From Manihot esculenta (Eukaryota > Streptophyta > Magnoliopsida > Malpighiales > Euphorbiaceae), in the NCBI RefSeq assembly GCF_001659605.2, contig NC_035176.2, positions 24,050,716-24,114,715 on the forward strand: DNA of 64,000 nt. The letters run 5' to 3'. A program made the position numbers and the translations under genes. Shown piece by piece: positions 6,970 to 33,545 of this stretch. The notes beneath the pieces are model-generated. The model was not told where the DNA came from. It made no database searches and saw nothing but the letters and a program-made list of their open reading frames with translations. How positions within the stretch are numbered: position 1 is the first letter of the stretch; each line of letters opens with the position of its first letter.

Positions 6970-8366
6970 TATAGCAGTTGTCGAAGCCGTCAAAAATAAA
7001 CCTATTAAACAATCAACAATTAACTTGTAGATAGTGGCAATAGGGTCGAACCACAGGGATTTGACACTACGGTTTTTCTTAATAATGACTTGGACAAGTA
7101 AATTACAAATAATTAAAAAAGGGGGGATTTGATTTGATGAATTAATACTAAATAGCAAGAGAAAGCAATAATTTAAAAGGATAAGAATTTCAATGGGAAA
7201 AGGATTCTAGTTGAAGCATGGATGAATTCCAGTTTGTTTAGAATTGATCATTGACTTTTTGATACTTTTATTTATTTCAATAAGTTAGTTTAGGACGTGG
7301 AAGACGCTTCTCACAATCCAAATTCCCCCTTAGTTTTAGTTTGATTAGGAAACGTTCGCTAATCAAACTCTAGTTAACAAGTTGCCAAGGAACGTCCTTG
7401 GGGCTTTTAGCATCGAACAACTGTTAACTGCATTAGGACTTAGAGAAATCCAACTCTAACCTTGCTAACCGCGTGGTCAAGTTCAGATTATGCAACTGAT
7501 TATACTTGTGTTTAAACAATCTAAACAATTACGGACCTAAATTATTCAAATAATATATTACTCAAGCAATTAAAAACAACAGGCCTTAATTGATTTTAAA
7601 AGCAGAGTAATAATTATAGAAAGATCAGGTTGCATAAATATTAAAGGTAAATAAGAGTTTAATAATGGAGTATTAAATCTCCCAATTCATCACAGATCTG
7701 AAATTTTCAACTTCAACTAGAAAGGAGAATTGTTTAGCCACTCATGGTGGACAAAATCACAAAAGAAAAGAAGAAAGAAAAGAAGAAAAGCTGTTGTGTT
7801 TCTGCAGAATTTCTGAAGGTGGAGAGAGATGGCTCTGCTGGTTTAGATGTTGTCCCCTTTTATAGCTGGAGAATCCTTATCCAATTAGGGTTTGGAAATC
7901 CCAATCTTGACTTGGTCTTCTTTGTAGTCTTTGATTCCTCTTTTATTTTGTATTTAATTGTGAATGGAATTCTTTAAGTGAAAGACTTTTTCGTGGCTCT
8001 TGGGACTGATCTTGCAGTATTTAAAATGGATTTGGACTTCTCCACTTTTGAATTTCAGTTTTCTGCACTTTTCCCGCTTCTGCTGTCTCTCTGCGTCAAT
8101 GTGATTTGGGCGGGTGATTTGGGCAGATCACTTGCCCAAATCATTTCTGCGAATTTACTTCCAGGTTTCTGCCTCAGCTTCCTTTGCTTGATTTGGCCAA
8201 ATCACTTTGACCCAATCACTTTTCCAGCTTTTCCTGCACTTTTTCTCCAACTTTCCATTTTCTTCCTTTCCTGTAAAAACATGACAAAAACCATAGATTA
8301 AGCTGAAAAATGTGTAATTAAATAGTAATGAAAATAGTAAAAATGTGGCTAAATTATGTTTGATCA
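6970..8366 (-). repeat. 5' LTR of element 1
   Basis: About 1.4 kb from the primer site to TTTGATCA. The inner end reads TA instead of TG. The minus strand has a TATA-like CTATAAAAGGGG at 7865-7854, a likely promoter. The outer part holds a cluster of four or five palindrome copies (8101-8143 and 8189-8206). Short open frames here are not supported as genes. Confidence 0.82.
7854..7865 (-). promoter_or_regulatory. TATA-like box in LTR of element 1
   Basis: CTATAAAAGGGG on the minus strand, in the middle of the LTR where the U3/R border is expected. Confidence 0.5.
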
Positions 8367-8938
8367 GCAATAAACACAGGAATAATATAAATAACAAGAA
8401 TAATTGAGAAAACTATAGAATCACATAAATCTCACAACTGATTGAACTAGAACTTTAATTATCCTTTAACTAAAAAGAAGAAATTTAGCCACACATGTTC
8501 ATGGCTAAGAATGGGAGATGAAAGATGAGATGATATCAGATACATCAGAATGCTCCCTTTTTATAGTGCTAAGAGTCATAAATACAAGTAGCTAAAATCA
8601 AAATCGAGTACAGCTTGGCAGATGAGAGTTATCTGTTTGATTCCCAGATTTAAAGTTGGGCTCTGTTCGTCAAGTATGTTTATGCCCATAACGTAGTCCA
8701 TAACACAGCTTGTCTGAAAATTAGAGTTCAAATATGACTATGTTCCTTATCCTTCTATGAATTTGATTGTGCCCACCTTTGATCTCAGAACGTGGATTCC
8801 AAATTGGATTTTTCTCTTATTATTCTCTAATTCTACTAAGATAACAAAATTTAAACGAATCAACCTATTTTAAACGAAATCAAACTCAATATCTAAGTAT
8901 TTTGTAATATTAAAGCTGTATAATTGTGCATATTATCA
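8367..8938 (-). repeat. 3' LTR of element 4 (outer part lost to element 1 insertion)
   Basis: Ends with TATTATCA at 8938, followed by the pyrimidine complement of the polypurine tract. It matches 31795-32339 over its length. A TATA-like CTATAAAAAGGG lies on the minus strand at 8566-8555. GCAAT at 8367-8371 is the right target duplication of element 1. Confidence 0.85.
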
Positions 8939-9503
8939 ATTCCCCCACACTTAAATCAGACTTGCCCTCAAGTGTGTACTCATTAATCAGAAAAGACTCA
9001 TAAAAGCTACCCATAATCAATAGCTCACAAAGTTAACTTAATTTAATTCAAGCAACCAGCATTCACAGTAAAATCTCATCAATGTATATAAATCATAAAA
9101 GAAATACCAATATAATCTTCAAAACTGAAATGTAACAAACTCATTCTTAATATGTGACCATGCAATTAAGTTCCATCAAATTCTTAAGTTGGTGGATAAA
9201 GAAATATATACCCAACTAACCAAGAAAGTCTCTTAAAATTATAATTTTCACCAAGAAATCCAAGAATTTAGTTTTTATTTATTTTATCATTTTTATTTTT
9301 ATGGTGTTGGTTTGAGATTTTTTTCGACTCCTACGAGGGTATACTCTCCCAAAACTGGTTTTTTCCATTTACAAGTGACATCCCTTACTTAAGGGGAATG
9401 GGCCCAAACCACCCAAACCAATCGATGATGGTAAACCATATTATTAGTGGTATGTTTCGAATTATTGACAGTCCCTACAGGGTATAATTCTCCCAATCAT
9501 TAG
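8939..9503 (-). other. PPT and 3' internal region of element 4, left piece
   Basis: Starts with ATTCCCCCACACTT, the complement of the polypurine tract. The rest is non-coding. ATTAG at 9499-9503 is the left target duplication of element 3. The motif around 9358-9400 (TTTTTCCAT then ACATCCCTTACTTAAGGGG) recurs in similar form just right of element 3 (25953-25988). Confidence 0.75.
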
Positions 9504-11004
9504 TGACTCGCGGTTGTCGAAGCCGGTCAAAAATAACCTCTACGATTATCAATAATTTTATAACTGCAGATAGTGGTAAAGGATCGAATCCACAGAGAAT
9601 TGAATACTCATCTATTCTTCTCGAACAAGATCAACTGAAAGCACAATTGGAGGTAAGTAACTGAAGGCAGACCAAAAGTAAAGTGCAATAAAGTAAAAAG
9701 GGGGTTTTGAGATTGATTTTACTAACAACTATTGAAAGCAATTAAAGCAGCAAGTAATTAAAATAAAAGTGAAAATCAATATGAGAAAGGTCTAGTTGAA
9801 GATATGGATCCACTTTGGTTGTTTGGGTTGATCATTGAAACTTATATTCCCTTGATTGGTTCAATAGATTAGTTATAGAGGTGGAAAACGCTTCTCACCA
9901 CCATGTCTCTCCTTATGATTAAATCAATTAGGGAACGTCCTCTAATCAATTACTAATTAACAAATTACCAAGGAACGTCCTTGGGCCTTAGGCATCAAAA
10001 CAATTGTCAATTGCATAAAGAATGAGAGAGATCCAATCCTAGCTACTCCAAAGGCATGAAGATGATGCTAGATCATACAATTCCTTAGTTTTTACACCAA
10101 GTGTTCTTAGGTCAGAATATTTCCAGCAATTACGGACTAACAAATATCCCGACTAACAATCAATTAACTTTGCAATCAAAAATCAAGTGGCCAATTTGAT
10201 CAAAACAACAAAGCAATCTTAGAATTAAGCACACAATTGCATGAATATTGAATAAACCAAAAGCAAACACTTTATGTTCAGATCTCACAACCCTTTAAAC
10301 AACCTTAGTTTCAACCAAACTTCAACTAGAATTAGGGTTTCAGCCACTCATGGCTGAACCAAAACAAAAAGTAGAAGAAGAGAAGAAGAGAAGGTGGAAC
10401 CGACGGCCGAAGGTGGAGGAGATGGGCGGCCGAACCCTTGGAGAGGTGGTGATTGAATTCTTGAAATCTTCAAATCTGCCTCTTCTTGTCTTCATAAGGC
10501 CTTTAAATATGTCTTGGGAGGTTGCCTAGGATTTCTTGGGTGTCCATGCATCTTTTAGAGGTTGCCCAAAGTGCCCTTAGTCTTATATGTGCCTTCTAGG
10601 TGCATGTGTGAAGTTGCAAGGACTTTTTGGTCTTTTAATTGCTGCCCAAGTGTGTCCAAGAAGTTTCCTTCACATTATTCTTGCCACCCATGCACTAAAG
10701 AGGAAGGTGGAGCCTCCTTTTGAATTTCGAATGTGCATGGCATGAAGTGGGAAACATGTGATCTTCAAGATTTGGCTTCTTGAATAAGGAAGAGGCAGTT
10801 CGGGAGGACTTTCGGCCGCCTAAACTTGTTTTCGGAAGCTGGACTTTCGGCTCTGGAGAAGACTTGCGGCTACCGAAGGTGCTTCCGAAGATGGTTGAGT
10901 TTCGGCTCTGGTCGAGGCTTTCGGCCGCCGAAGGTGCTTCCGAAGCTGGCTTTTCCAGATTTGGCACTTTTTTGGCAGTTTTGAGAGCATTTTCTCTTGA
11001 TTGA
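9504..11004 (-). repeat. 3' LTR of element 3, main part
   Basis: From TGACTCGCGG to the element 2 border; the remaining 114 bp are at 20875-20988. The part 9807-11004 matches 24639-25832 closely. Near 10814-10945 it holds TTCGGCCGCC palindromes. Open frames across this GC-rich part exist on both strands and are not supported as genes. Confidence 0.88.
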
Positions 11005-13277
11005 TGTAATACCCGGCTAGACTCCGGTATCAGAATTCCTACCGTTCGATGGAATCTCGGATGTTGGAAACCTCTAGAAGGGTAAAATTATGTTTTTATA
11101 AAATTTTTTAATGTATTTTATGATTTTAAGTAAGAAGGAAATTGATTTTTTGAATGAAAAAGACCATGGAGGCATTTCCAGGTTCGGCCGCCAAACATTG
11201 GATGGTTTAGGGGGGCAAGTTAGGCTCCCGAAAGTGGCTCAGGTTCGGCCGCCGAACCTCATGTTCGGCCGCCGAACTTGCATGAGTTTTAGTGGCACTT
11301 TAGGCTGCTGAAAGGTGGTCTGGCCAGCCCCTATAAGAGGGCTCCATGGCCGAAACGGGCGAGTTTCCTCCCCATTTTCGGCCAACGGTGAGTCCATGCT
11401 CTCCCATGGTCGTTTTTGTTGATTTTCCTCCCAATCTTTCAAGTTTTAACAAGTGTTTGCTGGGTTTTTGAAGATTTGTGAACTTAGAGCAAGTTTTGGA
11501 GCTTGGAGACCCAAGGAGCTAGATCTCTCCCATCTCCAAGTTAGGATCGTCTTCCCTTTCGATCTTTAAGAGGTAAGCCTAGATCCTACCTCTCTTGTAT
11601 GTTTTAAACGAGTTTTATGAGTTTTTTTGGGGTAGAAATGCATGTTTAGGTTTTATTTGAGTTTATGGGTTTATGTTGTAATTATGAGCAATGTGGCTTA
11701 TTTATGTATGTTTGATGTGTTGTAGTTGGGGTTTAGGATAGTTTGAAGCCCCTAGGAGCTTATGTATGTGTGTATGCATGTTGTAGAAGTGTTGTGTTCG
11801 AGTTGAATGGTTTGGGAGGTGTTTATGCATATAGGAGGCTGAGTTTTGCCCTTTGGAAGAACTCAGGTTCGGCTGTCGAAGGGACTTTCGGCCGCCGAAC
11901 CTGCCTATAGAGGCAAGCCTTTGGCTGCCGAACCCTGCCCCCGAAAGTGGACTTTCAGCTTTGGAAAGGAGTTTTGGCTGCCGAAGGTGCCGCCGAACAT
12001 GCATGAGTTTCGTCTCTGGAGAGAACCTTCGGCCGCCGAAAGTGCCGCCGAAGGTGCCTGACTTTCGGCTCTGGAGGGACTTTCGGCCGCCGAACCTGCC
12101 ACCGAAAGTGCCCTATTCAGCCTTCCTTTGCATAATTTCTATGATTGTTTTAAGGTGTTTTAGGGGGTCTTTGGGGAGTATTTTAGAGTCATGTTCTTGT
12201 GTGTTTGGTCCCTCATTTGAGTCCACCTGTGTAGGTTCGGACCCGAGGAACCGAGGACCTCAGCAGTGAGATAGCTGCTTCAGAGTCTTGTCTGAGCTAG
12301 CCTGAGGTGAGTAGAATAAACCTTTATGTTTTAAATTAATGAAAGTTTTAGCATGATTCACGCATCATGAATGCCATGAGATATATTAGGTTGTTGCATT
12401 AGAATTCATGAATATGTTGCATTGCATATTATGTTGTTGATGTGGATGAATATTGAATGATCCATTAGTCCTCGTATGATATGGTATGATATGATGATGA
12501 TATGGTACGAAAGTCCAGGAAGACCCATTCTACGTCTCTGGCACTATGTAAGAGAAAGTCTAGGAAGACCCATTCTACGTCCCTGGCACATTGGAATGTT
12601 ATGATATGTTATGTAAGGGAAAGACCAGGACCCATTCTACGTTCTGGCACTTTTGGATATGTTGAGGGCTATTGGTGACAAATTCATCCTTAATGTGATT
12701 TGTTTATGATGTGATGCATTTCATGAAAGCATGAACTTTAAATAATGTTTTATTATTCTGCTCACTGGGCTCTAGTAGCTCACCCCATTTCCCTAATCCC
12801 CCAGGTATGCAGGTACGGGCTAGTCCAGGAGGTCAGCAGGATTAGAAGTGTTTTATGTAATAGTTAGTTGTGGACATGAGAATATTGTGATGTAATGTAT
12901 TGAATAGTCATGTAGTAATGATATTGAGGATTAGAATTGTGCTTGACCCTATATGTATGATTATCCCCTTTGATACATGATCTATAAAATGTTTTTATGA
13001 TGTTGAAGTTTAACCAAACTTAGTTATGTTATGATACCCCATTGGAGCATTTGATGAGGACTCCAATGTGGGATTGATGATTATGATCATGAGTTGTGCA
13101 TGCACAGGTTGAGTTTGGTAAATGAATGAGAAAAGTTCAAAATTTTTATGTATGTGTTGATCATGTATGGGATTAAACAGGTGTACAGGATGTATGTTAG
13201 GCTTGCTACGGGTCCCGGCGGCCTTAAGCCGATCTGGATCCTAGCGCCGGTAGCGGTCCGATTTTCGGGTTGTTACA
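11005..13277 (+). repeat. 5' LTR of element 2
   Basis: 2273 bp. It has a TATA-like CTATAAGAGG at 11331-11340, two clusters of the GTTCGGCCGCCGAAC palindrome (11182-11277 and 11875-12110), and a tandem segment around 12500-12650 with repeated GACCCATTCTACGT. It differs from the 3' LTR by point changes and by repeat copy number. Confidence 0.93.
11331..11340 (+). promoter_or_regulatory. TATA-like box of element 2 LTR promoter
   Basis: CTATAAGAGG, present in the same context in the other LTR at 18972-18981. It lies just downstream of the palindrome cluster, so the palindromes would fall in U3, close to the promoter. Confidence 0.5.
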
Positions 13278-13280
13278 GAT

Positions 13281-13293
13281 TGGTATCAGAGCC
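13281..13293 (+). promoter_or_regulatory. Primer binding site of element 2 (tRNA-iMet)
   Basis: TGGTATCAGAGCC, three bases after the LTR end. This is the standard complement to the 3' end of initiator methionine tRNA. Confidence 0.92.
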
Positions 13294-13527
13294 CTAGGTT
13301 CATATGGTCGGACCTAGAGAGTGTCGGGCTCATAGAGGTTATAGAAGGTCAAGCACAATAGGAAAATCATGTCCACTAGGATAGGATGTGAAATGCCATG
13401 ATTATATGCATGCACATTGATGATATGCTATGTATGTGATGTATGTGATGCGGGTTCATGTGTTTCCACATGAACCATTTGATGCTAATGTTTTACGTGA
13501 TGTGTGCTATTTTTTTCAGTAAGCAAG

Positions 13528-14931
13528 ATGAGAGGAACTCGTCGATCTGCACGATTGACTGGAGTACCACCCCAGGACGAGGGCACGGATGCCCGTCCTC
13601 CCGCATTGCCTAGGGCAATGTCCTGCAGGTCTAGCAGGGAGAGAGCATCAAGGGACCCTAGAAGGTCTTTTGATGTGAGCAGAAGGGGAACAGTGCAAGG
13701 TGGAATGTCGGAAGATGTGGGGAATGATATGGATGTGGATCAGAGGAGGGATGGCAGTCTTGGAGTGAGTATGTCTGAAGAGGGTATGGGAGAGTCCCAA
13801 GGAGGCACTCAGGCCTCGGGATTTGTTCAGCCACCCCAGTACCCACCCTTTTCACAGAATTCCGGGTATTCGATGGGAGCTACATCGGATTACCCCAGTT
13901 TTAACCCTTACCCTTCTCACATGCCATACCCACCTTTCTACCCACCATACCCACAGTACCCTATGTACCCACCCCCATCTTTCTACCCAGGTTCAGCAAA
14001 CCCTATCCCAGGGGATGCTGCACCTCCTCCACCACCAGCAGAACCTACTGTCCCAGAAACCCAAATGCCTAAGCCTACCTCATCTGGAGGGAGCAAGGTC
14101 AAGATGACCGATTACATGAAGCTGGGTGCTCCCCAATATGAAACAGGGGATGACCCGTTTGTGTACCTTGAGAGGGTTAAGATGATTACAGATAAGATAG
14201 GAGCTGATGACAGTAGAGCCATTCAGATGGCTGGGTTCACTCTGAAGTGCAAGAAGGCCCGAGAGTGGTTCAAGAACTATGTTAACCCGAAGTTGGATAG
14301 CCTATCATGGGAAGAGTTTGCCAATGAGTTTGCAGGATGGGCTTTCCTTGACAGTTCAAAAGAGTTGAAGATGATTGAATTTGAGCAGTTGAGGCAGACA
14401 GAGGAGATAAGTGTGGATGAGTATACAGATAGGTTCTTGGAGCTGTTGCCATTTGCTGGGCAGAATCTGGACACAGACCAGAAGAAGTCAAGGAGGTTTA
14501 TCATGAAGCTTCATTCCAGATATTCCTCCTTGATCCAGTCAATAGAAAGGGAGAGTTTCCATGCCATAGTGGATATGGCCCGGAGGATGGAGGCTAGTGC
14601 AATAATCGAAGGGAAAGTCAAGCAGTCAATAGCACAGCCTTCTGGTTCCAAGACCCCAGGTGGGGGAAGGATAGACCCTTCTTCTTTAAGTTCAGGCAGT
14701 AAGCGGTGGAGCAATACCACCAAGAAGTCAAAGAAGAACAAGTTTTGGAACAAGATCAAGTCGGGTCTAGGATTAGGGAGTGGCTCAAGCTCAGGCATAG
14801 ATAATGCAGTATGCATGAAGTGTGGGAAGCCGCACAAAGGAGTATGTCGGTTTGGGACGACAGCCTGCTTCAGATGTGGGCAGGAGGGACACATGGCACA
14901 GGAGTGTCCTAGAGCAGCTTTTGTGGCATAG
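13528..14931 (+). pseudogene. Gag of element 2
   Basis: Start chosen at ATG 13528 (MRGTRRSARLTG); an in-frame ATG at 13504 is also possible. A Pro/Tyr-rich segment (around 13840-14050) precedes the capsid-like domain (about 14100-14600), then a basic region and the zinc knuckle CFRCGQEGHMAQEC (CX2CX4HX4C). It ends at TAG 14929-14931, but the same frame continues directly into protease, so this stop is probably a secondary mutation of a single gag-pol frame. Confidence 0.92.
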
Positions 14932-15390
14932 TCCCAGCAGACAGCTTCGGGTAGTGTGGCTCAGCCAGTAGCTCCAGCCGCGACTCAGACTAGTGGCAGA
15001 GGTCGAGGGAGAGAGGCAGCCTCTTCTTCAGCGGGTTTCAGGGGTGAAGGTCCATCAGCTCCAGCATGGATCTTCACGATGACTCAGCAGGAGGCAAATG
15101 CATCAAACACCATGGTGTCAGGTAATCTTATCATTGGTTGTTCAGATGTTTATGCCTTAATGGACCCTGGTGCATCTCATTCTTTCATTGCTCCGAGGGC
15201 CGTCGAGAGGTTGGGTTTGATGGTCTCTGGGTTAGAGTGTCCCCTATGGGTCAGTGGACCCAAGTGTGACCTGTCTGTGGCAGAGTCAGTCTGCCAGTGT
15301 AGTCCAGTTTTTGTTGAGGGAAGATGCCTTTCAGCCGACCTTGTGGTTCTAGATTTGACAGATTTTGACGTCATTCTAGGGATGGATTGA
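14932..15390 (+). pseudogene. Aspartic protease of element 2
   Basis: Same reading frame as gag. The active-site motif is LMDPGASHSFI around 15160-15190, with VILGMD near the end. It stops at TGA 15388-15390, where the family normally has a tryptophan after GMD. The protease would process the gag-pol polyprotein. Confidence 0.9.
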
Positions 15391-16374
15391 CTATCTACCC
15401 ATGGTGCTACCTTGGATTGCAGAGACAAGGTAGTCAGGTTCAGATGTCAGGATGGGTCAGAGGTTGTCTTCAGAGGAGACAGGAGGGGTACACCTAGAGG
15501 TTTGATATCAGCCCTACAGGCTCGTAGGTTGCTCAGAAGGGGTTGTCAGGGTTTTCTAGCTCATGTGAGAGAGCTGGACAGTCATGTCAGAGAGCCCGCC
15601 TCAGTGCCCGTGGTCAGAGAGTTTTTAGATGTCTTCCCAGACGAGCTGCCAGGTTTATCACCTGCTAGGGAGATAGAGTTCGAAATAGAGTTGATGCCTG
15701 GAACTAGACCGATCTCTATCCCTCCCTACAGGATGGCACCAGCAGAATTGAATGAGCTTAAAGAGCAGTTGCAAGAGCTGGTAGATAAGGGCTTCATTCG
15801 ACCGAGTACCTCACCTTGGGGTGCTCCAGTGCTGTTTGTGAAAAAGAAAGATGGATCCCTTAGACTTTGTATCGACTACAAGCAGTTGAACAAGGTCACT
15901 ACCAAGAATAAGTACCCGTTGCCGAGGATCGATGATCTATTCGACCAGCTAGCAAGAGCAGGTTGTTTCTCCAAGATAGATCTAAGATCCGGGTACCATC
16001 AGCTGAGGATAAGAGAAGAGGATGTACTGAAGACAGCATTCAGGACCAGATATGGGCACTATGAGTTCCTTGTAATGCCATTCGGGTTAACCAATGCCCC
16101 TGCAGCATTCATGGATCTCATGAACAGAGTTTTCAGTCAATACCTGGATCACTTTGTTATTGTCTTCATAGATGATATCTTAGTGTACTCTAGGAATGAA
16201 GAGGAGCATGCCCATCATCTGAGGTTAGTTCTGCAGACCTTGAGGGAACATGGCTTGTATGCCAAGTTCTCCAAGTGTGAATTCTGGCTGAGGAGCATTT
16301 CATTCTTGGGGCATGTGGTGTCAGAAAATGGAATACAGGTGGACCCCAAGAAGGTGGAAGTTGTAGCTAACTAG
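15391..16374 (+). pseudogene. Reverse transcriptase of element 2
   Basis: Same frame. Motifs in order: [40 protein letters not shown], the catalytic FIDDILVYS and FLGHVVS. All core residues of a Ty3/gypsy RT are visible. TAG at 16372-16374 interrupts the frame just before the connection to RNase H. Confidence 0.94.
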
Positions 16375-17109
16375 CCTAGACCCACTACAGTGACAGAGAT
16401 CAAGAGCTTCTTGGGTTTGGCAGGTTACTACAGAAGGTTCATCCAGGACTTCTCTAAGATTGCAGCTCCTATGACCAGACTGACTAAGAAGAACCAGAGG
16501 TTTGTGTGGACTGACCAGTGTGAAGAGAGCTTCGAAGAGCTAAAGAAGAGGTTGATGTCGGCACTAGTGTTAGCTCTGCCAATTAGCAATGAAGACTTCA
16601 CAGTGTATTGTGATGCGTCCCGTGTGGGACTGGGTTGTGTGCTGATGCAGAACGAAAGGGTGATTGCTTATGCTTCTAGACAGCTGAAGAAGCACGAGTT
16701 GAATTACCCTACACATGACCTAGAAATGGCAGTGATGATCTTTGCACTCAAGATGTGGAGGCATTACCTTTATGGGGTAAAATGTGAGATCTTCACCGAT
16801 CATAAGAGCCTGCAGTACATCTTGAGTCAGAGGGAGTTGAATCTAAGGCAGAGAAGATGGGTAGAACTGCTTAGTGACTATGATTGCAAGATCCAGTACC
16901 ATCCGGGTAAGGCGAATGTTGTGGCAGACGCCTTAAGCCGGAAATCACTTGGCAGTTTGTCCCATATTTCAGCAGAGAGAAGACCAGTGGTGAGGCAATT
17001 CTTCGAGCTCACTAATGAGGGCTTGCAGTTGGAGTTGTCTGGTACAGGTGCTTTGATAGCCCAGATGAGAGTGGCACCCGTGTTTCTGGAGCAGGTGGCT
17101 CAGAAATAG
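16375..17109 (+). pseudogene. RNase H of element 2
   Basis: Same frame. Starts with the connection ([11 protein letters not shown]) and has the four acidic motifs CDAS, LEMAV, FTDHKSL and VADALSRK, all intact. TAG at 17107-17109 separates it from integrase. Confidence 0.93.
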
Positions 17110-18507
17110 CACGAGGACCCAGAGTTAGTGAAGATTGCCAGGACTGTTCAGTCAGGCAAGAACGAAGAGTTCAGATTTGACAGTAAAGGGATCCTCCGCT
17201 ATGGGAATAGATTGTGTGTACCAGATGACGTGGGTCTAAAGGGAGACATTATGAGAGAGGCTCATAATGCCAGATACAGTGTTCACCCTGGAGCCACCAA
17301 GATGTATCAAGATCTGAAGAGAGTGTATTGGTGGCCAGCTATGAAGAGAGAAGTGGCACAGTTCGTGTCAGCCTACGAAGTTTGTCAGAGGATGAAGCTA
17401 GAACATCAGAAGCCGGCTGTAATGCTTAACTCACTACCTATTCCAGAGTGGAAATGGGAGAATATAGCTATGGACTTCGTGGTAGGGTTACCAGCAGCGT
17501 CCAATAGATTGGACTCCATATGGGTGATTGTGGACAGACTGACCAAATTTGCTCACTTCATCCCTGTCAGGAGTGGCTACTCTGTGGACAAGCTGGCGCA
17601 GGTGTATGTTGATGAGATTGTCAGGTTGCATGGGGTTCCTGTTTCAATAGTGTCTGATAGAGGACCCCAGTTCACCTCCAGGTTTTGGCGGAGTCTGCAG
17701 AATGCCATGGGTACCAGGTTGGACTTTAGCACTGCTTTCTATCCACAGACGGACGGACAATCTGAGAGGACCATCCAAACAATAGAGGATATGCTTAGAA
17801 TGTGTGTGCTGGATTTTGGCGGTTCTTGGAGGCAGCATCTACCTTTGGTGGAGTTTGCCTACAATAACAGCCATCATGCTAGCATAGGGATGGCTCCATA
17901 TGAAGCTTTGTATGGAAGGAAGTGCAGGTCGCCTATCTGTTGGGAAGAAGTTGGAGAAAGAGCCTTGGCAGGGCCTGAGCTAGTAGAGATCACCAGCAGA
18001 GTGGTGCCCATAATCAGAGAAAGGATCAAGACTGCTGCAAGCAGACAGAAGAGTTATGCAGACATTCGCAGAAGGCAAGTAGAGTTTCAGGAGGGGGATT
18101 TGGTATTGCTCAAAGTGTCTCCAATGAAAGGGGTGATCCGGTTCGAGAAGAAAGGTAAGCTAGCTCCACGGTACATCGGACCCTTTGAAATCTTGCAGAA
18201 GATCGGGAATGTATCGTATAAGCTGGATTTACCTGCTTCAATGGAGAGAATCCATCCGGTTTTCCATGTTTCCATGTTAAGAAAGTTCGTGTCAGATCCG
18301 GGCAAGGTTCTTAGTGAGCCTGATGTGGAGATCCAAGAATATCTCACCTATGTTGAGCAGCCAGTACGGATCCTAGACACCCAAATCAGAAAGCTAAGGA
18401 ACAAGGAAATTCCGATGGTGAAAGTCCTTTGGAATCACCACAACATCGAAGAGTGTACCTGAGAGACACGGGAGTCCATGCTCTAGCAATATCCTCATCT
18501 CTTCTAA
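17110..18507 (+). pseudogene. Integrase with chromodomain-type tail of element 2
   Basis: Same frame. The zinc-binding part has both histidines and the second cysteine (VCQRMK), but the first cysteine position reads Tyr (SAYEVC). The DDE core has AMDFVVG, IVSDRGPQF and DGQSERTIQ. The tail (LAPRYIGPFEI, VFHVSMLRK, VKVLWNHH) is the chromodomain region that is thought to steer insertion to chromatin. TGA at 18460 and TAG at 18484 break the last 16 codons before the natural TAA at 18505-18507. Confidence 0.93.
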
Positions 18508-18568
18508 GGTGAGTTTTATGTGCTTTATGTGTATGTTTATGTTTTATGCTATGCATGTGTTGTTTGGT

Positions 18569-18590
18569 GAACATTCGGGGACGAATGTTC
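18569..18590. promoter_or_regulatory. Hairpin upstream of PPT, element 2
   Basis: An inverted repeat GAACATTCG-GGGA-CGAATGTTC (9-bp arms) immediately before the polypurine tract. I recall the same hairpin-PPT arrangement from other Del/Tekay elements; role unknown, possibly RNA structure at the 3' end. Confidence 0.7.
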
Positions 18591-18592
18591 TT

Positions 18593-18605
18593 AAGGGGGG
18601 AAGAA
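18593..18605 (+). promoter_or_regulatory. Polypurine tract of element 2
   Basis: AAGGGGGGAAGAA directly abuts the 3' LTR start TGTAATACCC; it primes plus-strand DNA synthesis. Confidence 0.9.
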
Positions 18606-20874
18606 TGTAATACCCGGCTAGACTCCGGTATCGGAATTCCTACCGTCCGATGGAATCTCGGATGTTGAAAACCTCTAAAAGGGTAAAATTATATTTTTAT
18701 AAAATATTTTAATGTATTTTATGATTTTAAGTAAGAAGGAAATTGAGTTTTTGAATGAAAAAGACCATGGAGGCATTTCCAGGTTCGGCCGCCGAACCTC
18801 AAGTTCGGCCACCGAACCTCAAGTTCGGCCGCCGAATATTGGATGGTTTAGGGGGGCAAGTTAGGCTCCCGAAAGTGGCTCAGGTTCGGCCGCCGAACCT
18901 CATGTTCGGCCGCCGAACTTGCATGAGTTTTGGTGGCACTTTAGGCTGCCGAAAGGTGGTCTGGCCAGCCCCTATAAGAGGGCTCCATGGCCGAAACGGG
19001 CGAGTTTCCTCCCCATTTTCGGCCAACTGTGAGTCCATGCTCTCCCATGGTCGTTTTTGTTGATTTTCCTCCCAATCTTTCAAGTTTTAACAAGTGTTTG
19101 CTGGGTTTTTGAAGATTTGTAAACTTAGAGCAAGTTTTGGAGCTTGGAGACCCAAGGAGCTAGATCTCTCCCATCTCCAAGTTAGGATCGTCTTCCCTCT
19201 CGATCTTCAAGAGGTAAGCTTAGATCCTACCTCTCTTGTATGTTTTAAACGAGTTTTATGAAGTTTTTTTGGGGTAGAAATGCATGTTTAGGTTTTATTT
19301 GAGTTTATGGGTTTATGTTGTGTTTATGAGCAATGTGGGTTGTTTATGTATGTTTCATGTGTTGTAGTTGGGGTTTAGGATAGTTTGAAGCCCCTAGAAG
19401 CTTATGTATGTGTGTATGCATGTTGTAGAAGTGTTGTGTTCGAGTTGAATGGTTTGGGAGGTGTTTGTGCATATAAGAGGCTGAGTTCTGCCCTTTGGAA
19501 GAACTCAGGCTCGGCAGCCGAAGGGACTTTCGGCCGCCGAACCTGCCTATGGAGGCAAGCCTTTGGCTGCTAAACCCTGCCCCCGAAAGTGGACTTTCGG
19601 CTCTGGAAAGGAGTTTCGGCCGTCGAAGGTGCCGCCGAACATGCATGAGTTTCGTCTCTGGAGAGAACCTTCGGCCGCCGAAAGTGCCGCCGAAGGTGCC
19701 TGACTTTCGGCTCTGGAGGGACTTTCGGCCGCCGAACCTGCCGCCGAAAGTGCCCTGTTCAGCCTTCCTTTGCATGATTTCTATGATTGTTTTAAGGTAT
19801 TTTAGGGGGTTTTTGGGGAGTATTTTAGAGTTATGTTCTTGTGTGTTTGGTCCCTCATTTGAGTCCACCTGTGTAGGTTTGGACCCGAGGAACCGAGGAC
19901 CTCAGCAGTGAGATAGCTGCTTCAGAGTCTTGTCTGAGCTAGCCTGAGGTGAGTAGAATAAACCTTTATGTTTTAAATTAATGAAAGTTTTAGCATGATT
20001 CACGCATCATGAATGCCATGAGATATATTAGGTTGTTGCATTAGAATTCACGAATATGTTGCATTGCATATTATGTTGTTGATATGGATGAATATTGAAT
20101 GATCCATTAGTCCTTGTATGATATGGTATGATATGATGATGATATGGTACAGAAGTCTAAGAAGACCCATTCTACGTCCCTGGTACATTGGAATGTTATG
20201 ATATGTTATGTAAGGGAAAGACCAGGACACATTCTACGTTCTGGCACTTTTGGATATGTTGAGGGCTATTGGTGACAAATTCATCCTTAATGTGATTTGT
20301 TTGTGATGTGATGCATTTCATGAAAGCATGAACTTTAAATAATGTTTTATTATTCTGCTCACTGGGCTCTAGTAGCTCGCCCCATTTTCCTAATCCCCCA
20401 GGTATGCAGGTACGGGCTAGTCCAGGAGGTCAGCAGGATTAGAAGTGTTTTATGTAATAGTTAGTTGTGGACATGAGAATATTGTGATGTAATGTATTGA
20501 ATAGTCATGTAGTAATGATATTGAGGATTAGAATTGTGCTTGACCCTATGTGTATGATTATCCCCTTTGATACATGATCTATAAAATGTTTTTATGATGT
20601 TCAAGTTTAACCAAACTTAGTTATGTTATGATACCCTATTGGAGCATTTGATGAGGACTCCAATGTGGGATTGATGTTTATGATCATAAGTTGTGCATGC
20701 ACAGGTTGAGTTTGGTAAATGAATGAGAAAAGTTCAAAATTTTTATGTATGTGTTGATCATGTATGGGATTAAACAGGTGTACAGGATGTATGTTAGGCT
20801 TGCTACGGGTCCCGGCGGCCTTAAGCCGATCTGGATCCTAGCGCCGGTAGCGGTCTGATTTTCGGGTCGTTACA
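18606..20874 (+). repeat. 3' LTR of element 2
   Basis: 2269 bp, near identical to the 5' LTR. It has three tandem copies (20-bp period) of the palindrome unit at 18783-18836, where the 5' LTR has one, and lacks one copy of the 12500-12600 tandem segment. Confidence 0.93.
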
Positions 20875-20988
20875 GTCTCTTTACACCTAATATCTGCAAA
20901 ACATTATTAAAACCACAAAATTAGGTAGAAAAGGTGTAAATAAACATCAATAAGATCATGATAATATGGACTAAAATATGCTCTATCA
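20875..20988 (-). repeat. 3' LTR of element 3, outer 114 bp
   Basis: Continues the LTR interrupted by element 2 and ends CTCTATCA, as does the 5' LTR at 25945. It matches 25832-25945. Confidence 0.88.
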
Positions 20989-22051
20989 AATACCCCCACA
21001 CTTAGCCTTTTGCTTGTCCTCAAGCAAATAAACATAGTCAAATAAGCTTTCTTTGCTCTAGATCCTTATTTTCACTTAAGCTCTTACTCAAGACACCTAT
21101 TTTGAATCATTGTAGTGAAGAATATATGCATGAAGATTACTTACCTTCTTTCCTTGTTTCCCTTTGCTTACCATGGTTAGGATTTGTTTTCCTCAAGAGA
21201 GAGATCATACATGCACATTAATTTGTTAAGACTTTTTCTAGCTTTTGGATTGACTTGCCCTTACCTTGAAGTACTTTATTCAGGCTTTTGCACTTAGATT
21301 TTCCTTGAAAAAGTCACCAACCTTTTGACGTGAAGGTACATATTTGTGATACCCACCCCCAGTTACTCAGTTGGTCACCTCTCCAAGTGGCTATTAGCTT
21401 TGTTCTTAGTCTTTTGACCATTGGAACAGTTTTTTATTTTGTGCTTTTGAGGTCTTTGCCTTTGCTGAATTTTCTTTCTCTCAATGATTTGGGCAAATCA
21501 ACACCAATTGCTAAAACAAGTCACATTAAGTTCATTCACACAACTTTCAATTTATTCTCTCTAATGAGGGTCATCAATATATTTTTCACCATGGCAAACT
21601 CAAAGATTCAATTCAAAAGGCAATTCTCAAATATGAATATAACTCACTGCAATTGATTCAACATAAGTTTAAAGAGTCATCACATCAATGGGGTCATGGA
21701 AAGAAAAACTCATCCAACATAGTTTATCAATTTGAGTAGAGCAAAACAAAAAGAAGAAGAAGGTTGTGGTTGTGTGTGTTTTATTGAAAGTATAAACTAA
21801 AAAATTTCAACTGTGGCTATTCAAGGTAAAACTAAAAGGAAAAAGAAAAAATTTTGCAATCTAAAAGCATTGTAAATTTGCAGAAGAAGAAAGGAAGAAG
21901 AAGAAGGGAAGAAAAGAAGAAGAAGAGGGGGAGGAGAAGAGAAATATGCACCCCCACACTTAAATCATGCATTGTCCTCAATGTATAAGAAACATAAAAG
22001 AACAAAGGAAATTGAATACTCCCCTGGGGTGTGGTGCATGGTGTGTGATTC
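20989..22051 (-). other. PPT and 3' internal region of element 3
   Basis: Begins AATACCCCCACACTT, the complement of the polypurine tract. The rest is non-coding; it includes one palindrome of the element 1 family at 21484-21501 and a purine-rich AAGAAG tract near 21885-21935. Confidence 0.75.
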
Positions 22052-23330
22052 CTATTCAGACCGAAATAGTGGAATTTCTTCCACTACTTGCACTGCGAAT
22101 CCTTCATAATATGGTTTCAGTTGATGCCTATTTACTTTAAAGATTTTTCCAGTTTCTATGCTTTTGATGTCTACAGCTCTATGGGGGTAGGCATGTTTCA
22201 CAATGAATGGTCCAATCAACCTAGATCGTAACTTTCCTGGAAACAATTTTAAACGAGAATTAAAGAGTAGGACTTTTTCACAAACCTCAAATTGTTTTCT
22301 GGAAAGATGACTGTCATGGGAGGCTTTGGTTTTTATTTTGTAGTTCCAGAAGGTCTCATATGCATCTCGTCTTATTTCTTCTAGCTCTTACAGTTGCAAC
22401 TTGCGATGGTGTACAGCTTCTTTAAGGTCCATGTTGCAATTCTTTACAGCTCAATATGCCTTGTGTTCAAGCTCGACTGGAAGGTGACAAGCTTTGCCAT
22501 AGACCAGTCTGTAAGGAGACATACCTATGGGAGTCTTGTAAGCTGTTCGGTAGGCCCATAAAGCATCTTCTAATCTGGTGCTCCAATCCTTTTGGTTAGG
22601 AGAGACTGTCTTTTCAAGGATGGCCTTGATTTCTCTGTTGGATATTTCAGCTTGCGCATTTGTCTGAGGGTGGTAGGCTGTGGATGTTCTATGGATCACA
22701 TTGTGCTTCCTGAGGAGGCTTTCCACTACCTTGTTGCAAAAATGGGTCCCTCTATCACTGATGATTGCCTTAGGTACTCCATGTCTGGCAAAGATATGGG
22801 TCTTCACAAAGTCCACTACTGCCTTGGCATCATCAGTTTTCGTTGCCCTAGCTTCCACCCATTTGGATACATAATCCACTGCAAGGATGATGTAGGTGTA
22901 TCCAAAAGATGGCGGGAATGGGCCCATGAAGTCTATACTCCAAACATCAAATACCTCACAGACCATGATGGGGTTTTGTGGCATTTGATTTCTTTTGTTC
23001 AGATTTCCAGTTTGTTGACACCTAGCACATGATCTGCAGAACAGAAAAGCATCTCGAAAAATAGTGGGCCAGAATAGGCCACTTTCAAGTATCTTATGGG
23101 CAGTTTTTTTTGGACCAAAGTGTCCTCCACAATTATATGAATGACAAAAAGTAAGCACAGAAGCTATCTCTTGATCTGGGATACATCTCTTTATCATTTG
23201 GTCAGCACAATGTTTCCACAAATATGGCTCATCCCAAACATAGTATTTGGCATCTTTCTTTATCTTGTCTTTGGTATGCTTAGGCATGTCAGATGGTAAG
23301 TTACCTGTGGCCAAGTAGTTTACCATGTCT
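22052..23330 (-). pseudogene. Integrase of element 3
   Basis: Intact zinc-binding region (CGGHFG then CRSCARCQ) and all three DDE residues ([27 protein letters not shown]) lie in one 291-codon stretch ending at TGA 22453-22451. The C-terminal part continues in frame through a second stop (TAA 22390-22388) to 22052. Both stops are one transition away from the residues seen at the same sites in element 1. The N-terminal border is a TAG at about 23332 that separates it from the protease frame. Confidence 0.88.
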
Positions 23331-23332
23331 GC

Positions 23333-24667
23333 CTACCATGGCTCATCAGATTGGGCAAGGAAGATTTGTTCAAGTAGGTCATTCTTACATTCTTCAGATT
23401 CTGAAAGGTGCTCCTGGCTTGACTGCAAAGGCGGACTGGAAGAGCTTGCTTGCATTGGTGTCTGTGGAACAAGGTTCGGCGGCCGAAGGGTGGTGGAGTT
23501 CGGCGGCCGAATGTCAGTAGTTTCAGCAGGCGATGAGATCTGAGGTGAAGGGTTCGGCGGCTGAAGGGAGTTTAGCTTTGGTGGCCGAATGGTTGCTGAG
23601 TTTGGCGGCCGAGAGTCAGTAGCGTTCGGCTGCCGAAAGTTTTCAGTGTGTTGGGCAGACTGTGGCGATGGGTTCTGCGTCTGGAAGGCAGTCAGGTTCG
23701 GCAGCCGAAGGATGTCTGTATTTGGCGGCCAAAAATCTTCAATCTGCGCAACATCAATCTGTTGGATGCTACAGACTGTTTTCTTGAGTTCTGGTTCTTT
23801 CTGGCTTTCAATTTGTATCTGATTAGTATCTCTGCAGAAATCACTGTTAAGAATATCATCTTGATTTTCATCAAAAATCTCCTGGCTCAAACAGTCAACA
23901 ATATCAAGACCATAAACAGGGGACATATCATGTGGATATTTCATGGCATCATAGACATTAAACTTAATGACTTCCCCTTCAAACTCCATAGTGAGAGTAC
24001 TATCATGCACATCAATTTTAGTTCTAGCAGTACTCAAGAAAGGACGTCCAAGAAGGATATCAGAACTAGTATTACAACTATCTTCCTTAGTATCAATCAC
24101 ATAAAAATCAGCAGGAAAAACTAGTTCATCTACTTGGACTAACACATCTTCTAAAACACCTATGGGATATACCACAGATCTATCAGCTAATTGGATCACA
24201 ACTCTTGTATCTTTCAGTGCACATGCATTTAGAGATTTATAGATGGAGAGAGGCATGACATTTATGGATGCACCAAGATCACACATAGCTTTCTTAATTC
24301 CAACATTCCCAATCTTACAAGAAATAGCAAACATACCTTTGTCTTTGCACTTAGTAGGGAGTTCTCTTTTAATCACAGCAGTAACAACTTCTCCTACACT
24401 TACTTTCTCTCTCTCAGCAAGCTTTCTTCTATTGGTACACAACTCTTTCAGAAATTTTGCGTACCTGGGAATTTGCTTAACAGCATCTAGCAATGGTATG
24501 TTGATTTCCACTTTTCTGAAAGTCTCAAGAATTTCCTTTTCTTCTTTTTCTTTTTGTGTTCTTTCAAACCTCTTGGGAAAAGGAGGTGGAATCTGAAAAT
24601 GTACCTTTTGACTACTCTTTTGCGTAGGTGGTGTTTCAGATCCACTTTGGTTGTTTGGGTTGATCAT
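23333..24667 (-). pseudogene. Protease and RPPN-repeat linker of element 3 with LTR-derived N-terminus
   Basis: A 444-codon open frame. The first ten codons come from the 5' LTR, because a deletion fused the LTR to the coding region near 24639. Next come the Lys/Glu-rich segment, the protease (CDLGASINVMPLSIY, ILLGRPFLSTARTKID) and a Pro-rich tail with many RPPN/RPPK/RLPN peptides coded by GTTCGGCGGCCGAA palindromes (23474-23730). It ends DEPW and a TAG, exactly where the RNase H-integrase linker of element 1 has PWYAD. RT and RNase H are therefore removed with the frame kept. Confidence 0.88.
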
Positions 24668-25945
24668 TGAAACTTATGTTCCCTTGATTGGTTCAATAGA
24701 TTAGTTATGGAGGTGGAAAATGCTTCTCACCACCATGTCTCTCCTTATGATTAAATCAATTAGAGAACGTCCTCTAATCAATTACTAATTAACAAATTAC
24801 CAAGGAACGTCCTTGGGCCTTAGGCATCAAAACAATTGTCAATTGCATAAAGAATGAGAGAGATCCAATCCTAGCTACTCCAAACGCATGAAGATGATGC
24901 TAGATCATACAATTCCTTAATTTTTACACCAAGTGTTCTTAGGTCAGAATATTTCCAGCAATTACGGACTAACAAATATCCCAACTAACAATCAATTAAC
25001 TTTGCAATCAAGAATCAAGTGGCCAATTTGATCAAAACAACAAAGCAATCTTAGAATTAAGCACACAATTGCATGAATATTGAATAAACCAAAAGCAAAC
25101 ACTTTATGTTCAGATCTCACAATCCTTTAAACAACCTTAGTTTCAACCAAACTTCAACTAGAATTAGGGTTTCAGCCACTCATGGCTGAACCAAAACAAA
25201 AAGTAGAAGAGAAGAAGAGAAGGTGGAACCGGCGACCGAAGGTGGAGGAGATGGGCGGCCAAACCCTTGGAGAGGTGGTGAATGAATTCTTGAAATCTTC
25301 AAATCTGCCTCTTCTTGTCTTCATAAGGCCTTTAAATATGTCTTGGTAGGTTGCCTAGGGTTTCTTGGGTGTCCATGCATCTTTTAGAGGTTGCCCAAAG
25401 TGCCCTTGGTCTTATATGTGCCTTCTAGGTGCATGTGTGAAGTTGCAAGGACTTTTTGGTCTTTTAATTGCTGCCCAAGTGTGTCCAAGAAGTTTCCTTC
25501 ACATTATTCTTGCCACCCATGCACTAAAGAGGAAGGTGGAGCCTCCTTTTGAATTTTGAATGTGCATGGCATGAAGTGGGAAACATGTGATCTTCAAGAT
25601 TTGGCTTTTTGAATAAGGAAGAGGCAGTTCGGGGGGACTTTCGGCCGCCTAAACTTGTTTTCGGAAGCTGGACTTTCGGCTCTGGAGAAGACTTGCGGCC
25701 GCCGAAGGTGCTTCCAAAGATGGTTGAGTTTCGGCTCTGGTCGAGGCTTTCGGCCGCCGAAGGTGCTTCCGAAGGTGGCTTTTCCAAATTTGGCACTTTT
25801 TTGGCAGTTTTGAGAGCATTTTCTCTTGATTGTCTCTTTACACCTAATATCTGCAAAACATGATTAAAACCACAAAATTAGGTAGAAAAGGTGTAAATAA
25901 ACATCAATAAGATCATGATAATATGGACTAAAATATGCTCTATCA
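24639..25945 (-). repeat. 5' LTR of element 3, inner 303 bp deleted
   Basis: 1307 bp matching 9807-11004 plus 20875-20988. Because element 2 is absent here, this copy shows the empty site TTGATTGTCTC at about 25827-25837. Palindromes recur at 25639-25770. Confidence 0.9.
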
Positions 25946-25950
25946 ATTAG

Positions 25951-31788: not shown

Positions 31789-32339
31789 ATAAATACCAAG
31801 AATAATTGAGAAAACTATAGAATCACATAAATCTCACAACCGATTGAACTGGAACTTCAATTATCCTTTAACTGAAGAGAAGAAATTTAGCCACACATGT
31901 TCATGGCTAAGAATGGGAGATGAAAGATGAGATGATATCAGATAAATCAGAATGCTCCCTTTTTATAGTGCTAAGAGTCCTAAATACAAGTAGCTAAAAT
32001 CAAAATCGAGTACAGCTTGGTAGATGAGAGTTATCTGTTTGATTCTCGGATTTAAAGCTGGATTCTGTTCGTCAAGTATGTTTATGCCCATAACATAGTC
32101 CATAACACAACTTGTCTGGAAATTAGAGTCAAATATGACTATGTTCCTTATCCTTCTATGAATTTGATTGTGCCCACCTTTGATCTCAGAATGTGGATTC
32201 CAAATTAGATTTTTCTCTTGTTATTCTCCAATCCTACCAAGATAACAAAATTTAAATGAATCAACCTGTTTTAAACGAAATTAAACTCAATGTCTAAGTA
32301 TTTTATAATATTAAAGTTGTATAATTGTGAATATTATCA
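31789..32339 (-). repeat. 5' LTR of element 4, outer part
   Basis: Matches 8385-8938 and ends ATATTATCA. A TATA-like CTATAAAAAGGG lies on the minus strand at 31969-31958. The next bases (GGACT) start inside the 92-bp tandem array, so element 4 inserted into that array. Confidence 0.85.
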
Positions 32340-33545
32340 GGACTAACACATGGTCATGTGCATGGTGAATTCCCGCCTTATGGCTTGCCTGACGGATACC
32401 TATCTTACGGCCTTAAAACTTTTGTTTATTGGGACTAACACCCAATTATGTGCCTGGCGGATTTCCGCCTTGTGGCTTGCTTGGTGGATACCCATTTTGT
32501 GGCCTTGAAACTTTATTTATTGGGACTAACATCGGGTTATATGCCTAGCAGATTCTTGCCTTGTGGCTCGCCTAGTGGATGCCTGCCTTGTGGCCTTGAA
32601 ATTTTTATTTATTAGGACTAACACTCGCTCATGCACCTGGCGAATACCCGCCTTGTGGCTCGCCTGGCGGATACACACCTCATGACCTTGAAACCTTTGT
32701 TTATGGGGACTAAAATTCGATCATATGTCTGGCGGATTCCCGCCTCGTGGCTCGCATAGCAGATACTTGTCTTATGGCCTTAAAACTTTTATTTATTGGG
32801 ACTAATACCTAGTCATGCACCTAGCGGATTTCTGCCTTGTGGCTTGACTAGCGGATACCCACCTTATGGCCTTAAAACTTTTACTTATCAGGACTAACAC
32901 CCAGTCATGTGCCTGGAGACTTCCTGTCTTGTAACTGGCCTAGCGGATACCTGCCTTATAGCCTTGAAACTTTTGTTTATCGAGACTAACACCCGATCAT
33001 GTGCTTGGCGGATTCTCGCCTTTTGGCTCGCCTGACGGATATTCATTTTCTGCCTTTGAAACTTTTATTTATCAGGACTAACATTCGGTCATGCACTTGG
33101 TAGATTCTTGCCTTATGGCTAGCCTGGCAGATATCCACTTTGTGGCCTTGAAACTTTTGTTTATTAGGACTAACACCCGGTCATATGCCTAGCGAATTCC
33201 CACCATGTGACTCGCCTGGCGAATACCTGTCTTGTGGCTATGAAACTTTTATTTGCTGGGACTAATACCCGGTCATGTGCCTGGCAGATTCCTGCCTAGT
33301 GGCTCGCTTGGAGGATACCCGCTTATGGCCTTGAAACTTTTATTTATCGGGACTAATACCCGGAATATAGCCTGATGGATTTCTACCTTGTGACCTGTCA
33401 TAAGATGCCTTTTTTAGTGGGACTAATACCCGAATTATGGCCTGATGGATTTTCAACTTGAAGTCTTGGCATAAGATGTCTTGTTTAGTGGGACTAATAC
33501 CCAGATTATGGCTTGATGAATTCCCACCTTGAGGCCCTTAATGAA
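32340..33545. repeat. Tandem array, about 12 units of 92 bp plus 2 shorter units
   Basis: Units start with GGACTAACACCCGGTCATG and contain CTTGTGGC and GCCTTGAAACTTTT. Starts fall at 32340, 32432, 32523, 32615 and so on to about 33350; the last two units are near 70 bp. It lies between the integrase tail and the lost 3' LTR, where Tat/Ogre elements are known to carry tandem repeats. Confidence 0.9.

What the first reader, a model, noticed from the sequence alone, without database searches (positions are those of the whole stretch)
10814..23730. Second palindrome family GTTCGGC-C-GCCGAAC shared by a Tekay chromovirus and an Athila-type element
Copies lie in both LTRs of element 2 (11182-11277, 11886-12110, 18783-18920, 19520-19750), in both LTRs of element 3, and in the element 3 coding region. 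The two elements belong to separate Ty3/gypsy branches and share no other sequence here, yet carry the same 15-mer with 7-bp arms. The motif has no stop in any frame. This suggests either horizontal spread of the palindrome between retrotransposons or convergent recruitment of a binding site or hairpin.
Basis: partly seen in the sequence, partly recalled or inferred. Interest (0 to 1): 0.9.

Follow-up and report, generated by a model that had tools for sequence, protein, structure and literature searches.

The report
Shared palindrome in cassava retrotransposon promoters
A 13-base mirror-image DNA word, TTCGGC-N-GCCGAA, occurs about a third of a million times in this cassava genome, in a sample mostly at fixed promoter positions of one retrotransposon lineage but also in two other lineages, which suggests that mobile elements share a protein-binding site.

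Summary
The palindrome is real but slightly misdescribed. The shared unit is the 13-mer TTCGGC-N-GCCGAA; the exact 15-mer occurs 5 times in the window, all in Tekay LTRs. That only the palindrome is shared is wrong for the two LTRs: Athila LTR 10840-10951 aligns over 112 bp at 79-80% with the Tekay LTR. Palindromes inside the Athila ORF do stand without flanks shared with the LTR arrays.

The genome is cassava. The 13-mer occurs 333,204 times in 640 Mb, reversed control 4. In 20 random 10-kb stretches it is in 11, with 113 copies: mostly Tekay LTRs, a few in an Athila LTR, Athila gag coding DNA and one copia-like solo LTR.

In ten Tekay LTRs from motif-bearing DNA, as different as about 61% identity, palindrome clusters keep their positions. 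The last upstream core starts 67-68 bp before TATA in the 6 of 10 that have one there. Half-site spacing is strictly 1 bp; compensatory change is at chance.

Best reading: arrays of a dimeric protein-binding site, like the Sirevirus 'repeated motif', in Ty3/gypsy elements, partly copied between families. The binder is unknown.

The parts
11005..13277 (+). Tekay-type Ty3/gypsy element, 5' LTR
   Evidence: LTR start TGTAATACCC and end GTTACA, followed by TGGTATCAGAGC, which I read as an initiator-Met primer site from recall; pair with 18606-20874
13278..18605 (+). Tekay-type internal region: gag with zinc knuckle, RT, RNase H, integrase
   Evidence: Pfam hits PF03732, PF00098, PF00078, PF17917, PF17919, PF17921, PF00665, PF24626 in four ORFs
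18606..20874 (+). Tekay-type element, 3' LTR
   Evidence: 97.3% identical to the 5' LTR over ungapped columns, 93.7% with gaps counted
11182..11277 (+). palindrome cluster 1 in the 5' LTR, upstream of TATA (TATAAG at 11332); 20-bp units
   Evidence: TATA 68 bp after start of last core
18783..18918 (+). palindrome cluster 1 in the 3' LTR, two more 20-bp units than the 5' LTR; TATAAG at 18973
11867..12095 (+). palindrome cluster 2 in the 5' LTR (55-bp compound units in part), downstream of the TATA box
19509..19737 (+). palindrome cluster 2 in the 3' LTR (55-bp compound units in part)
9504..11004 (-). Athila-type element, 3' LTR, part left of the Tekay insertion; TSD CTAAT at 9499-9503
   Evidence: ends and TSD read by eye
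20875..20988 (-). Athila-type element, 3' LTR, part right of the Tekay insertion
   Evidence: end read by eye
24639..25945 (-). Athila-type element, 5' LTR, truncated where it meets the gag-protease ORF; TSD CTAAT at 25946-25950
   Evidence: ends and TSD read by eye
10811..10932 (-). 55-bp palindromic array in the Athila 3' LTR (unit orientation opposite to Tekay relative to the element), shared with Tekay cluster 2
25640..25761 (-). 55-bp palindromic array in the Athila 5' LTR
23474..23733 (-). palindrome array inside the Athila ORF after the protease region; many 24-bp (8-codon) steps, read as RPPN and variants; flanks not shared with the LTR arrays

Best explanation
The motif is a repeated cis-acting protein-binding site, two inverted TTCGGC half-sites one base apart, used by the Tekay LTRs of cassava. 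One cluster sits at a fixed distance upstream of the TATA box and a second lies about 500-750 bp downstream of it. A dimeric DNA-binding protein, either a host transcription factor or a TE-encoded factor, binds the arrays and drives or protects LTR transcription. The arrays grow and shrink as minisatellites. One Athila subfamily took up the 55-bp unit from a Tekay-like LTR, and a copia-like LTR shares an 18-bp piece as well as the palindrome. Shown: motif, copy number, positions, conservation, spacing, sharing. Inferred: binding, promoter function, direction Tekay to Athila. The factor is unknown.
For: 333,204 copies of the 13-mer against 4 for the reversed control. In a random 200 kb it is 113 of all 239 odd 6-1-6 palindromes; the next word has 8. 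TTCGGC...GCCGAA half-sites are 1 bp apart in 113 cases and in 0 cases 0, 2-12, 14 or 15 apart; the 23 cases at 13 bp fit neighbouring palindromes. In 10 Tekay LTRs (9 elements, three groups at 59-64% identity between groups, all from motif-bearing DNA) clusters stay at LTR positions about 178-300 and 817-1119. With L139, L132, w5 and L131 as reference in turn, cores match the other groups at 8.0-12 of 12 bases, exact fraction 0-1 per core (means by reference about 0.27-0.75); control 13-mers 7.2-7.4 of 12, exact 0.010-0.018. The last upstream core start lies 67-68 bp before TATA in 6 of 10 LTRs (5 elements; two are the pair of one element), the other 4 having no TATA there. Arrays in the Athila and copia-like LTRs also lie upstream of a TATA-like box. 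Over 207 sites there is no compensatory excess: 10 double changes, 3 complementary, 7.8 double expected.
Against: No binding, expression, methylation or small-RNA data could be examined. The arrays are minisatellites, so part of the conservation may be homogenisation, and the ten LTRs came from motif-bearing stretches. In the weakest reference (w5) 3 of 5 cores are exact in no LTR of another group, and 8 of 208 controls reach its mean. Cluster 2 of Tekay lies downstream of TATA, and the Athila coding arrays are not at a known promoter. Four of 10 Tekay LTRs have no recognisable TATA at the expected place.
Confidence: 0.55

Rival explanations
1. Neutral minisatellite: the palindrome and its 20- and 55-bp units are slippage-prone repeats that arose in a Tekay ancestor, are homogenised within LTRs, and hitch-hiked into other elements by ectopic recombination or gene conversion. 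No binding function.
For: Copy number of 20-bp units differs between the two LTRs of one element, 1 at 11182 against 3 at 18783-18837. Shared flanks between the Tekay and Athila LTR arrays. Nested insertion places the two side by side.
Against: Palindrome cores stay while flanks around them fall to 35-43% identity between groups (sites chosen by core, so partly circular), and cores beat control 13-mers of the same LTR in a test where cores were defined in the reference only. Fixed 67-68 bp to TATA. Athila coding arrays share no flanks with LTR arrays.
Confidence: 0.2
2. Hairpin and small-RNA reading: neighbouring palindromes fold as single-stranded RNA into long stems that feed, or evade, host siRNA silencing, as proposed for maize Sirevirus LTR palindromes.
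For: Tekay cluster 1 folds far better than shuffles (z -6.30), the Athila ORF array z -4.26, part of Tekay cluster 2 z -2.08; a Tekay LTR stretch without palindromes z 0.46. PMC5311732 (passages read) calls the palindrome motifs in the LTRs of three maize Copia families sRNA mapping hotspots.
Against: Athila LTR array z -0.52. No excess of compensatory changes over 207 sites. The centre base is free and the half-site sequence itself is what is kept, which suits protein recognition more than folding. An array of palindromes folds by construction.
Confidence: 0.13
3. TE-encoded anti-silencing factor: as with VANC proteins of Arabidopsis VANDAL elements, a protein made by one cassava element binds the tandem motif and removes methylation, and unrelated elements gain by copying the motif.
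For: Tandem short motif of high density in non-coding TE regions that evolves by repeat formation, as described for VANC targets in PMC5735166 (passages read); motif present in several lineages; half-site and spacing fixed.
Against: No candidate protein was sought or found. The VANC motifs quoted in the passages read are not palindromes, and the main text of PMC5735166 holds no word beginning 'palindrom'.
Confidence: 0.09
4. In the Athila ORF the repeat is simply a proline-rich amino acid repeat (RPPN), and the DNA palindrome is a by-product of its codons.
For: The steps between copies are multiples of 3 and the frame is open. L149 carries a similar linker repeat in the same frame.
Against: In a second Athila position, the gag N-terminus of L142, the same 13-mer is read in another frame as SAAE; L150 also carries it in the gag N-terminal region. 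None of the 120 listed homologues has two or more RPPN or SAAE in all. Position and frame vary while the DNA word stays.
Confidence: 0.03

Closest known systems
Repeated motif (RM) of Sirevirus LTRs (Ty1/copia), Bousios et al. 2010, PMC2829016 (section 9 and passages incl. abstract read)
   Same: Palindromic box with CGG-CCG core, many copies per element, clustered in the LTR upstream of the TATA box, extra copies inside the element near a coding region.
   Different: Described there as specific to Sireviruses, most elements having their own version (OPIE-2 and PREM-2 share one); here one identical 13-mer is used by Ty3/gypsy Tekay and Athila elements and a copia-like LTR of the same genome, with a second cluster downstream of TATA and copies inside Athila coding linkers.
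VANC target motifs of VANDAL DNA transposons, Hosaka et al. 2017, PMC5735166 (passages read; author name recalled)
   Same: Short motif repeated in tandem in non-coding TE DNA, evolving by repeat gain and loss; motifs recognised by VANC6 also occur in AT9TSD1, a TE unrelated to VANDAL.
   Different: DNA transposons (recalled), no palindrome mentioned in the passages read, known TE-encoded binder; here no binder is known.
Palindromic structures of maize Sirevirus LTRs and host epigenetic response (Bousios et al. 2016, Genome Res; paper not held; known only from the reference and citing passages in PMC5311732)
   Same: Palindromes in the regulatory region of LTRs of abundant elements.
   Different: Different host and, for most copies here, a different superfamily; no small-RNA data here. 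The maize box sequence comes from PMC2829016.

Membership tests
Sirevirus-type LTR repeated motif (RM) | palindromic box with CGG-CCG core | tested here: met
   TTCGGC-N-GCCGAA, spacer strictly 1 bp in the sample; definition from PMC2829016 section 9
Sirevirus-type LTR repeated motif (RM) | at least 8 copies per element, clustered in the upper half of the LTR upstream of TATA | tested here: inconclusive
   The window Tekay element has 12 exact 13-mers in its two LTRs; 4-9 per LTR in 10 LTRs; cluster 1 upstream of TATA where one is found, cluster 2 downstream
Sirevirus-type LTR repeated motif (RM) | carried by a Sirevirus (Ty1/copia) | tested here: not met
   The Tekay element has the order RT-RNase H-integrase (as Ty3/gypsy mark recalled); the Athila element here has integrase and a sub-threshold protease hit, no RT. 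The copia-like solo LTR was not typed
Sirevirus-type LTR repeated motif (RM) | boxes define CpG islands | not tested
   no CpG island program was run
VANC-type anti-silencing target | bound by a TE-encoded protein that lowers methylation | not testable with these tools
   no binding or methylation data held
   domains found, chromodomain not hit by Pfam in an ORF that ends at 18462; primer site read; no lineage tree was built
Athila-type element | Athila-like gag-protease and integrase | tested here: inconclusive
   rve and Integrase_H2C2 hits, protease below cut-off; 4845 relatives of the protease ORF, the named ones among the 120 listed being plant proteins; the Athila name rests on recall

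The most novel reading that the evidence does not exclude
One palindromic recognition word serves as a common control code for at least three unrelated retrotransposon lineages of one plant genome. It is gained both by copying of 55-bp units and by recruitment of the bare 13-mer, even inside coding linkers in two reading frames, so that a single DNA-binding protein addresses about a third of a million sites across the cassava genome.
Probability: 0.3. Interest if true: 0.87.

Novelty: new variant of a known kind. Interest (0 to 1): 0.66.

Why it matters
Palindromic LTR boxes were described as a Sirevirus feature for which no common binding factor was identified (PMC2829016). Here the same kind of box is in Ty3/gypsy elements, with one shared sequence, a conserved position and a spacing rule, at about one copy per 1.9 kb of a crop genome. 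That turns an open question, which protein reads these boxes, into a direct biochemical test with a defined 13-bp probe, and raises the possibility that unrelated mobile elements converge on, or exchange, one control site.

Tried and rejected
Rejected: the 15-mer as the unit (the outer base pair is not kept: 25 of 113 exact cores have G...C outside). Hairpin conservation. Chance. Pure Athila-Tekay gene conversion as the whole story (the copia-like LTR and the coding arrays). RPPN as the sole cause.

Helical phasing of spacings was tried: resultant about 0.4-0.5 at periods 10.5-11, also 0.40 at 12 for all spacings; tandem copies are not independent, so it is not used.

Protein searches: the Athila ORF gave 4845 homologues, 120 listed; its linker alone gave 1 hit, a Manihot protein with Athila-like pieces and no RPPN; an LTR reading frame gave 39 hits at E <= 1, of which 5 are named Manihot proteins and 34 unnamed (rows seen, sequences not studied). 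The 40 Athila LTR matches (97-100% identical, of 2451 first-look candidates) could not be cut out and were not checked for the array.

Papers: 0 papers hold the 13-mer with centre C or G. Searches aimed at a Ty3/gypsy counterpart of the Sirevirus boxes returned only PMC2829016; from searches I read no paper beyond passages of PMC2829016 (and its section 9), PMC5735166 and PMC5311732. The claim that such boxes are not in print for Ty3/gypsy rests on those searches of an open-licence library alone.
Full report
WHERE IT IS. The window is G000:C16:24050716-24114715 of a 640.36-Mb assembly. The five best homologues of the Athila ORF are Manihot esculenta proteins at 80-94% identity. The lengths of C8 (41,806,886) and C17 (35,156,893) equal those of contigs holding named Manihot esculenta proteins; C4 and C10 differ by 1,685 and 5,532 bases from the corresponding contigs. 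The window is therefore cassava, at most in another version of the assembly.

ELEMENTS. It sits inside the 3' LTR of an Athila-type element on the - strand. That element has LTR parts 9504-11004 plus 20875-20988 and 24639-25945, and a target-site duplication CTAAT at 9499-9503 and 25946-25950 (ends read by eye). Its protease-region ORF (a protease hit below the Pfam cut-off) adjoins its integrase ORF, and neither shows RT or RNase H.

THE MOTIF. The exact 15-mer occurs 5 times, all in Tekay LTRs. With 2 mismatches there are 25 sites, shuffle mean 0.02. The common unit is TTCGGC-N-GCCGAA, 18 exact in the window. In 20 random 10-kb stretches from contigs C1-C18 it occurs 113 times in 11 of 20. 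It makes up 113 of all 239 odd 6-1-6 palindromes there, the next word 8. Genome-wide there are 333,204 sites, against 4 for the reversed pattern; the 15-mer with centre C occurs 39,100 times on one strand and 38,410 on the other, control 0. Twelve fixed bases in 640 Mb would give about 38 by plain chance (arithmetic). A count of another palindrome of the same letters was asked for and not answered (and repeats).

CONTEXTS IN THE SAMPLE. Of 113 sites, 98 fall in matches to the window's Tekay LTR, 1 in the Athila LTR and 14 had no match to window parts. By position I assign 10 of those 14 to diverged Tekay-type LTRs (L130 2, L136 2, L139 6), 2 to the gag N-terminal coding region of an Athila element (L142) and 2 to a solo LTR of about 1.34 kb in L141 with TSD CCTCA. 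I call that solo LTR Ty1/copia-like from its end sequences, by recall; no internal region was seen, and only one copy. Three further stretches picked from the site list gave two more Athila elements with coding palindromes (L149 linker, L150 gag N-terminus) and one Tekay LTR (L151).

WHAT IS SHARED BESIDES THE PALINDROME. Tekay and Athila LTRs: 112 bp at 79-80% for the left Athila LTR, 79-81% for the right and, with palindromes masked, up to 34 bp at 82%, E 8e-5. The unit lies in opposite orientation relative to transcription in the two elements. Tekay (L131, L148) and the copia-like LTR: after masking, an exact 18-bp word, E 4.6e-4. The Athila ORF array and the L142 gag array share no flanks with the Tekay, Athila or copia-like LTR arrays at the thresholds used; between the two a single 11-bp match, E 0.05, was seen. 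The coding arrays step often by 24 bp; the word is read as RPPN in the window and in a similar form in L149, and as SAAE in L142. Apart from the window, four Athila elements with an LTR that could be followed were seen: L142 has the LTR array; L134, L150 plus L152 and L149 plus L153 do not: apart from the coding copies they hold no core at up to 2 mismatches (L134, L149) or 3 mismatches (L150, L152, L153), but for two 3-mismatch sites in L150 at 1256 and 2180. Partial Athila LTR matches in L136, L140 and L144 have no exact core within them either. So the LTR array was gained, or lost, independently of the coding arrays: L149 and L150 have coding copies without it.

CONSERVATION. Ten Tekay LTRs (9 elements), all taken from motif-bearing stretches or the window, fall in three groups at 59-64% identity to one another. 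Core clusters keep their positions in all ten, though not every core is in each LTR. A Tekay LTR tail in L146, which does not span the clusters, is the one such match in a motif-free stretch among the matches listed (at most 14 rows shown per stretch). With four LTRs as reference in turn, cores reach 8.0-12 of 12 matching bases in other groups, control 13-mers of the same LTR 7.2-7.4 on average; controls reaching the mean of the cores were 0 of 245, 3 of 199, 8 of 208 and 0 of 202. A TATA-like box lies 67-68 bp after the start of the last upstream core in 6 of 10 LTRs (5 elements); the other 4 have none there. Over 207 sites with up to 3 mismatches, in all contexts of the 11 stretches, double changes at a pair number 10 (7.8 expected), of which 3 are complementary, and the centre base is C 81, G 72, A 32, T 22. 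The word, not the folding, is what is kept. Single-strand folding is strong in Tekay cluster 1 (z -6.30) and the ORF array (z -4.26), weak in part of Tekay cluster 2 (z -2.08), absent in the Athila LTR (z -0.52) and in a control stretch (z 0.46).

MECHANISM. Strict 1-bp half-site spacing, a free centre, fixed promoter distance and retention in diverged LTRs fit a dimeric DNA-binding protein on LTR promoters. The arrays also behave as minisatellites: the two LTRs of one element differ, with 1 against 3 twenty-bp units at the first cluster. I put binding-site arrays first (0.55), neutral minisatellite second (0.20).

KNOWN RELATIVES. Bousios et al. 2010 (PMC2829016; section 9 and passages read) describe palindromic boxes, all but one with a CGG-CCG core, in Sirevirus LTRs upstream of TATA, with extra copies before the envelope gene, called Sirevirus-specific against classic retrotransposons, with no common binding factor found. 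The cassava motif is the same kind of thing in other lineages. It works like an RM; it is not a Sirevirus RM by carrier. VANC targets (PMC5735166, passages read) are a second model: tandem motifs bound by a TE-encoded protein.

LIMITS. No other plant genome could be searched, 43 calls to the genome search did not complete, the copia-like LTR was seen once, lineage names rest on recall, and no functional data were at hand.

Noticed in passing
window 11000-11004 and 20875-20879: The Tekay insertion has no 5-bp target-site duplication (ATTGA left, GTCTC right), judged against the uninterrupted Athila LTR at 25832; possibly a product of recombination between two Tekay copies.
   Followed up: partly
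window 23333-24673 and 22451-23332 (-): The Athila-type element has no RT or RNase H hit between protease region and integrase, and its 5' LTR is cut and joined to the gag-protease ORF; it looks non-autonomous.
   Followed up: partly
window 8387-8938 and 31789-32339: Direct repeat at 94% identity 23.4 kb apart, possibly LTR pieces of an outer element that holds the others.
   Followed up: no
window 32334-33363: 92-bp tandem array of about 11 copies (also seen as a 276-bp period).
   Followed up: no
window 63217-63572: Long GAA run, about 119 units.
   Followed up: no
window 54437-55195 (-): Open reading frame that looks like a mitochondrial carrier protein (impression from the sequence, not searched).
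   Followed up: no
L131 and L148 Tekay LTRs; L141 around 7220-7240: An 18-bp word GAGACTTTCGTCTCTGTC, itself with inverted ends GAGAC/GTCTC, is shared by Tekay LTRs and the copia-like LTR besides the palindrome.
   Followed up: partly
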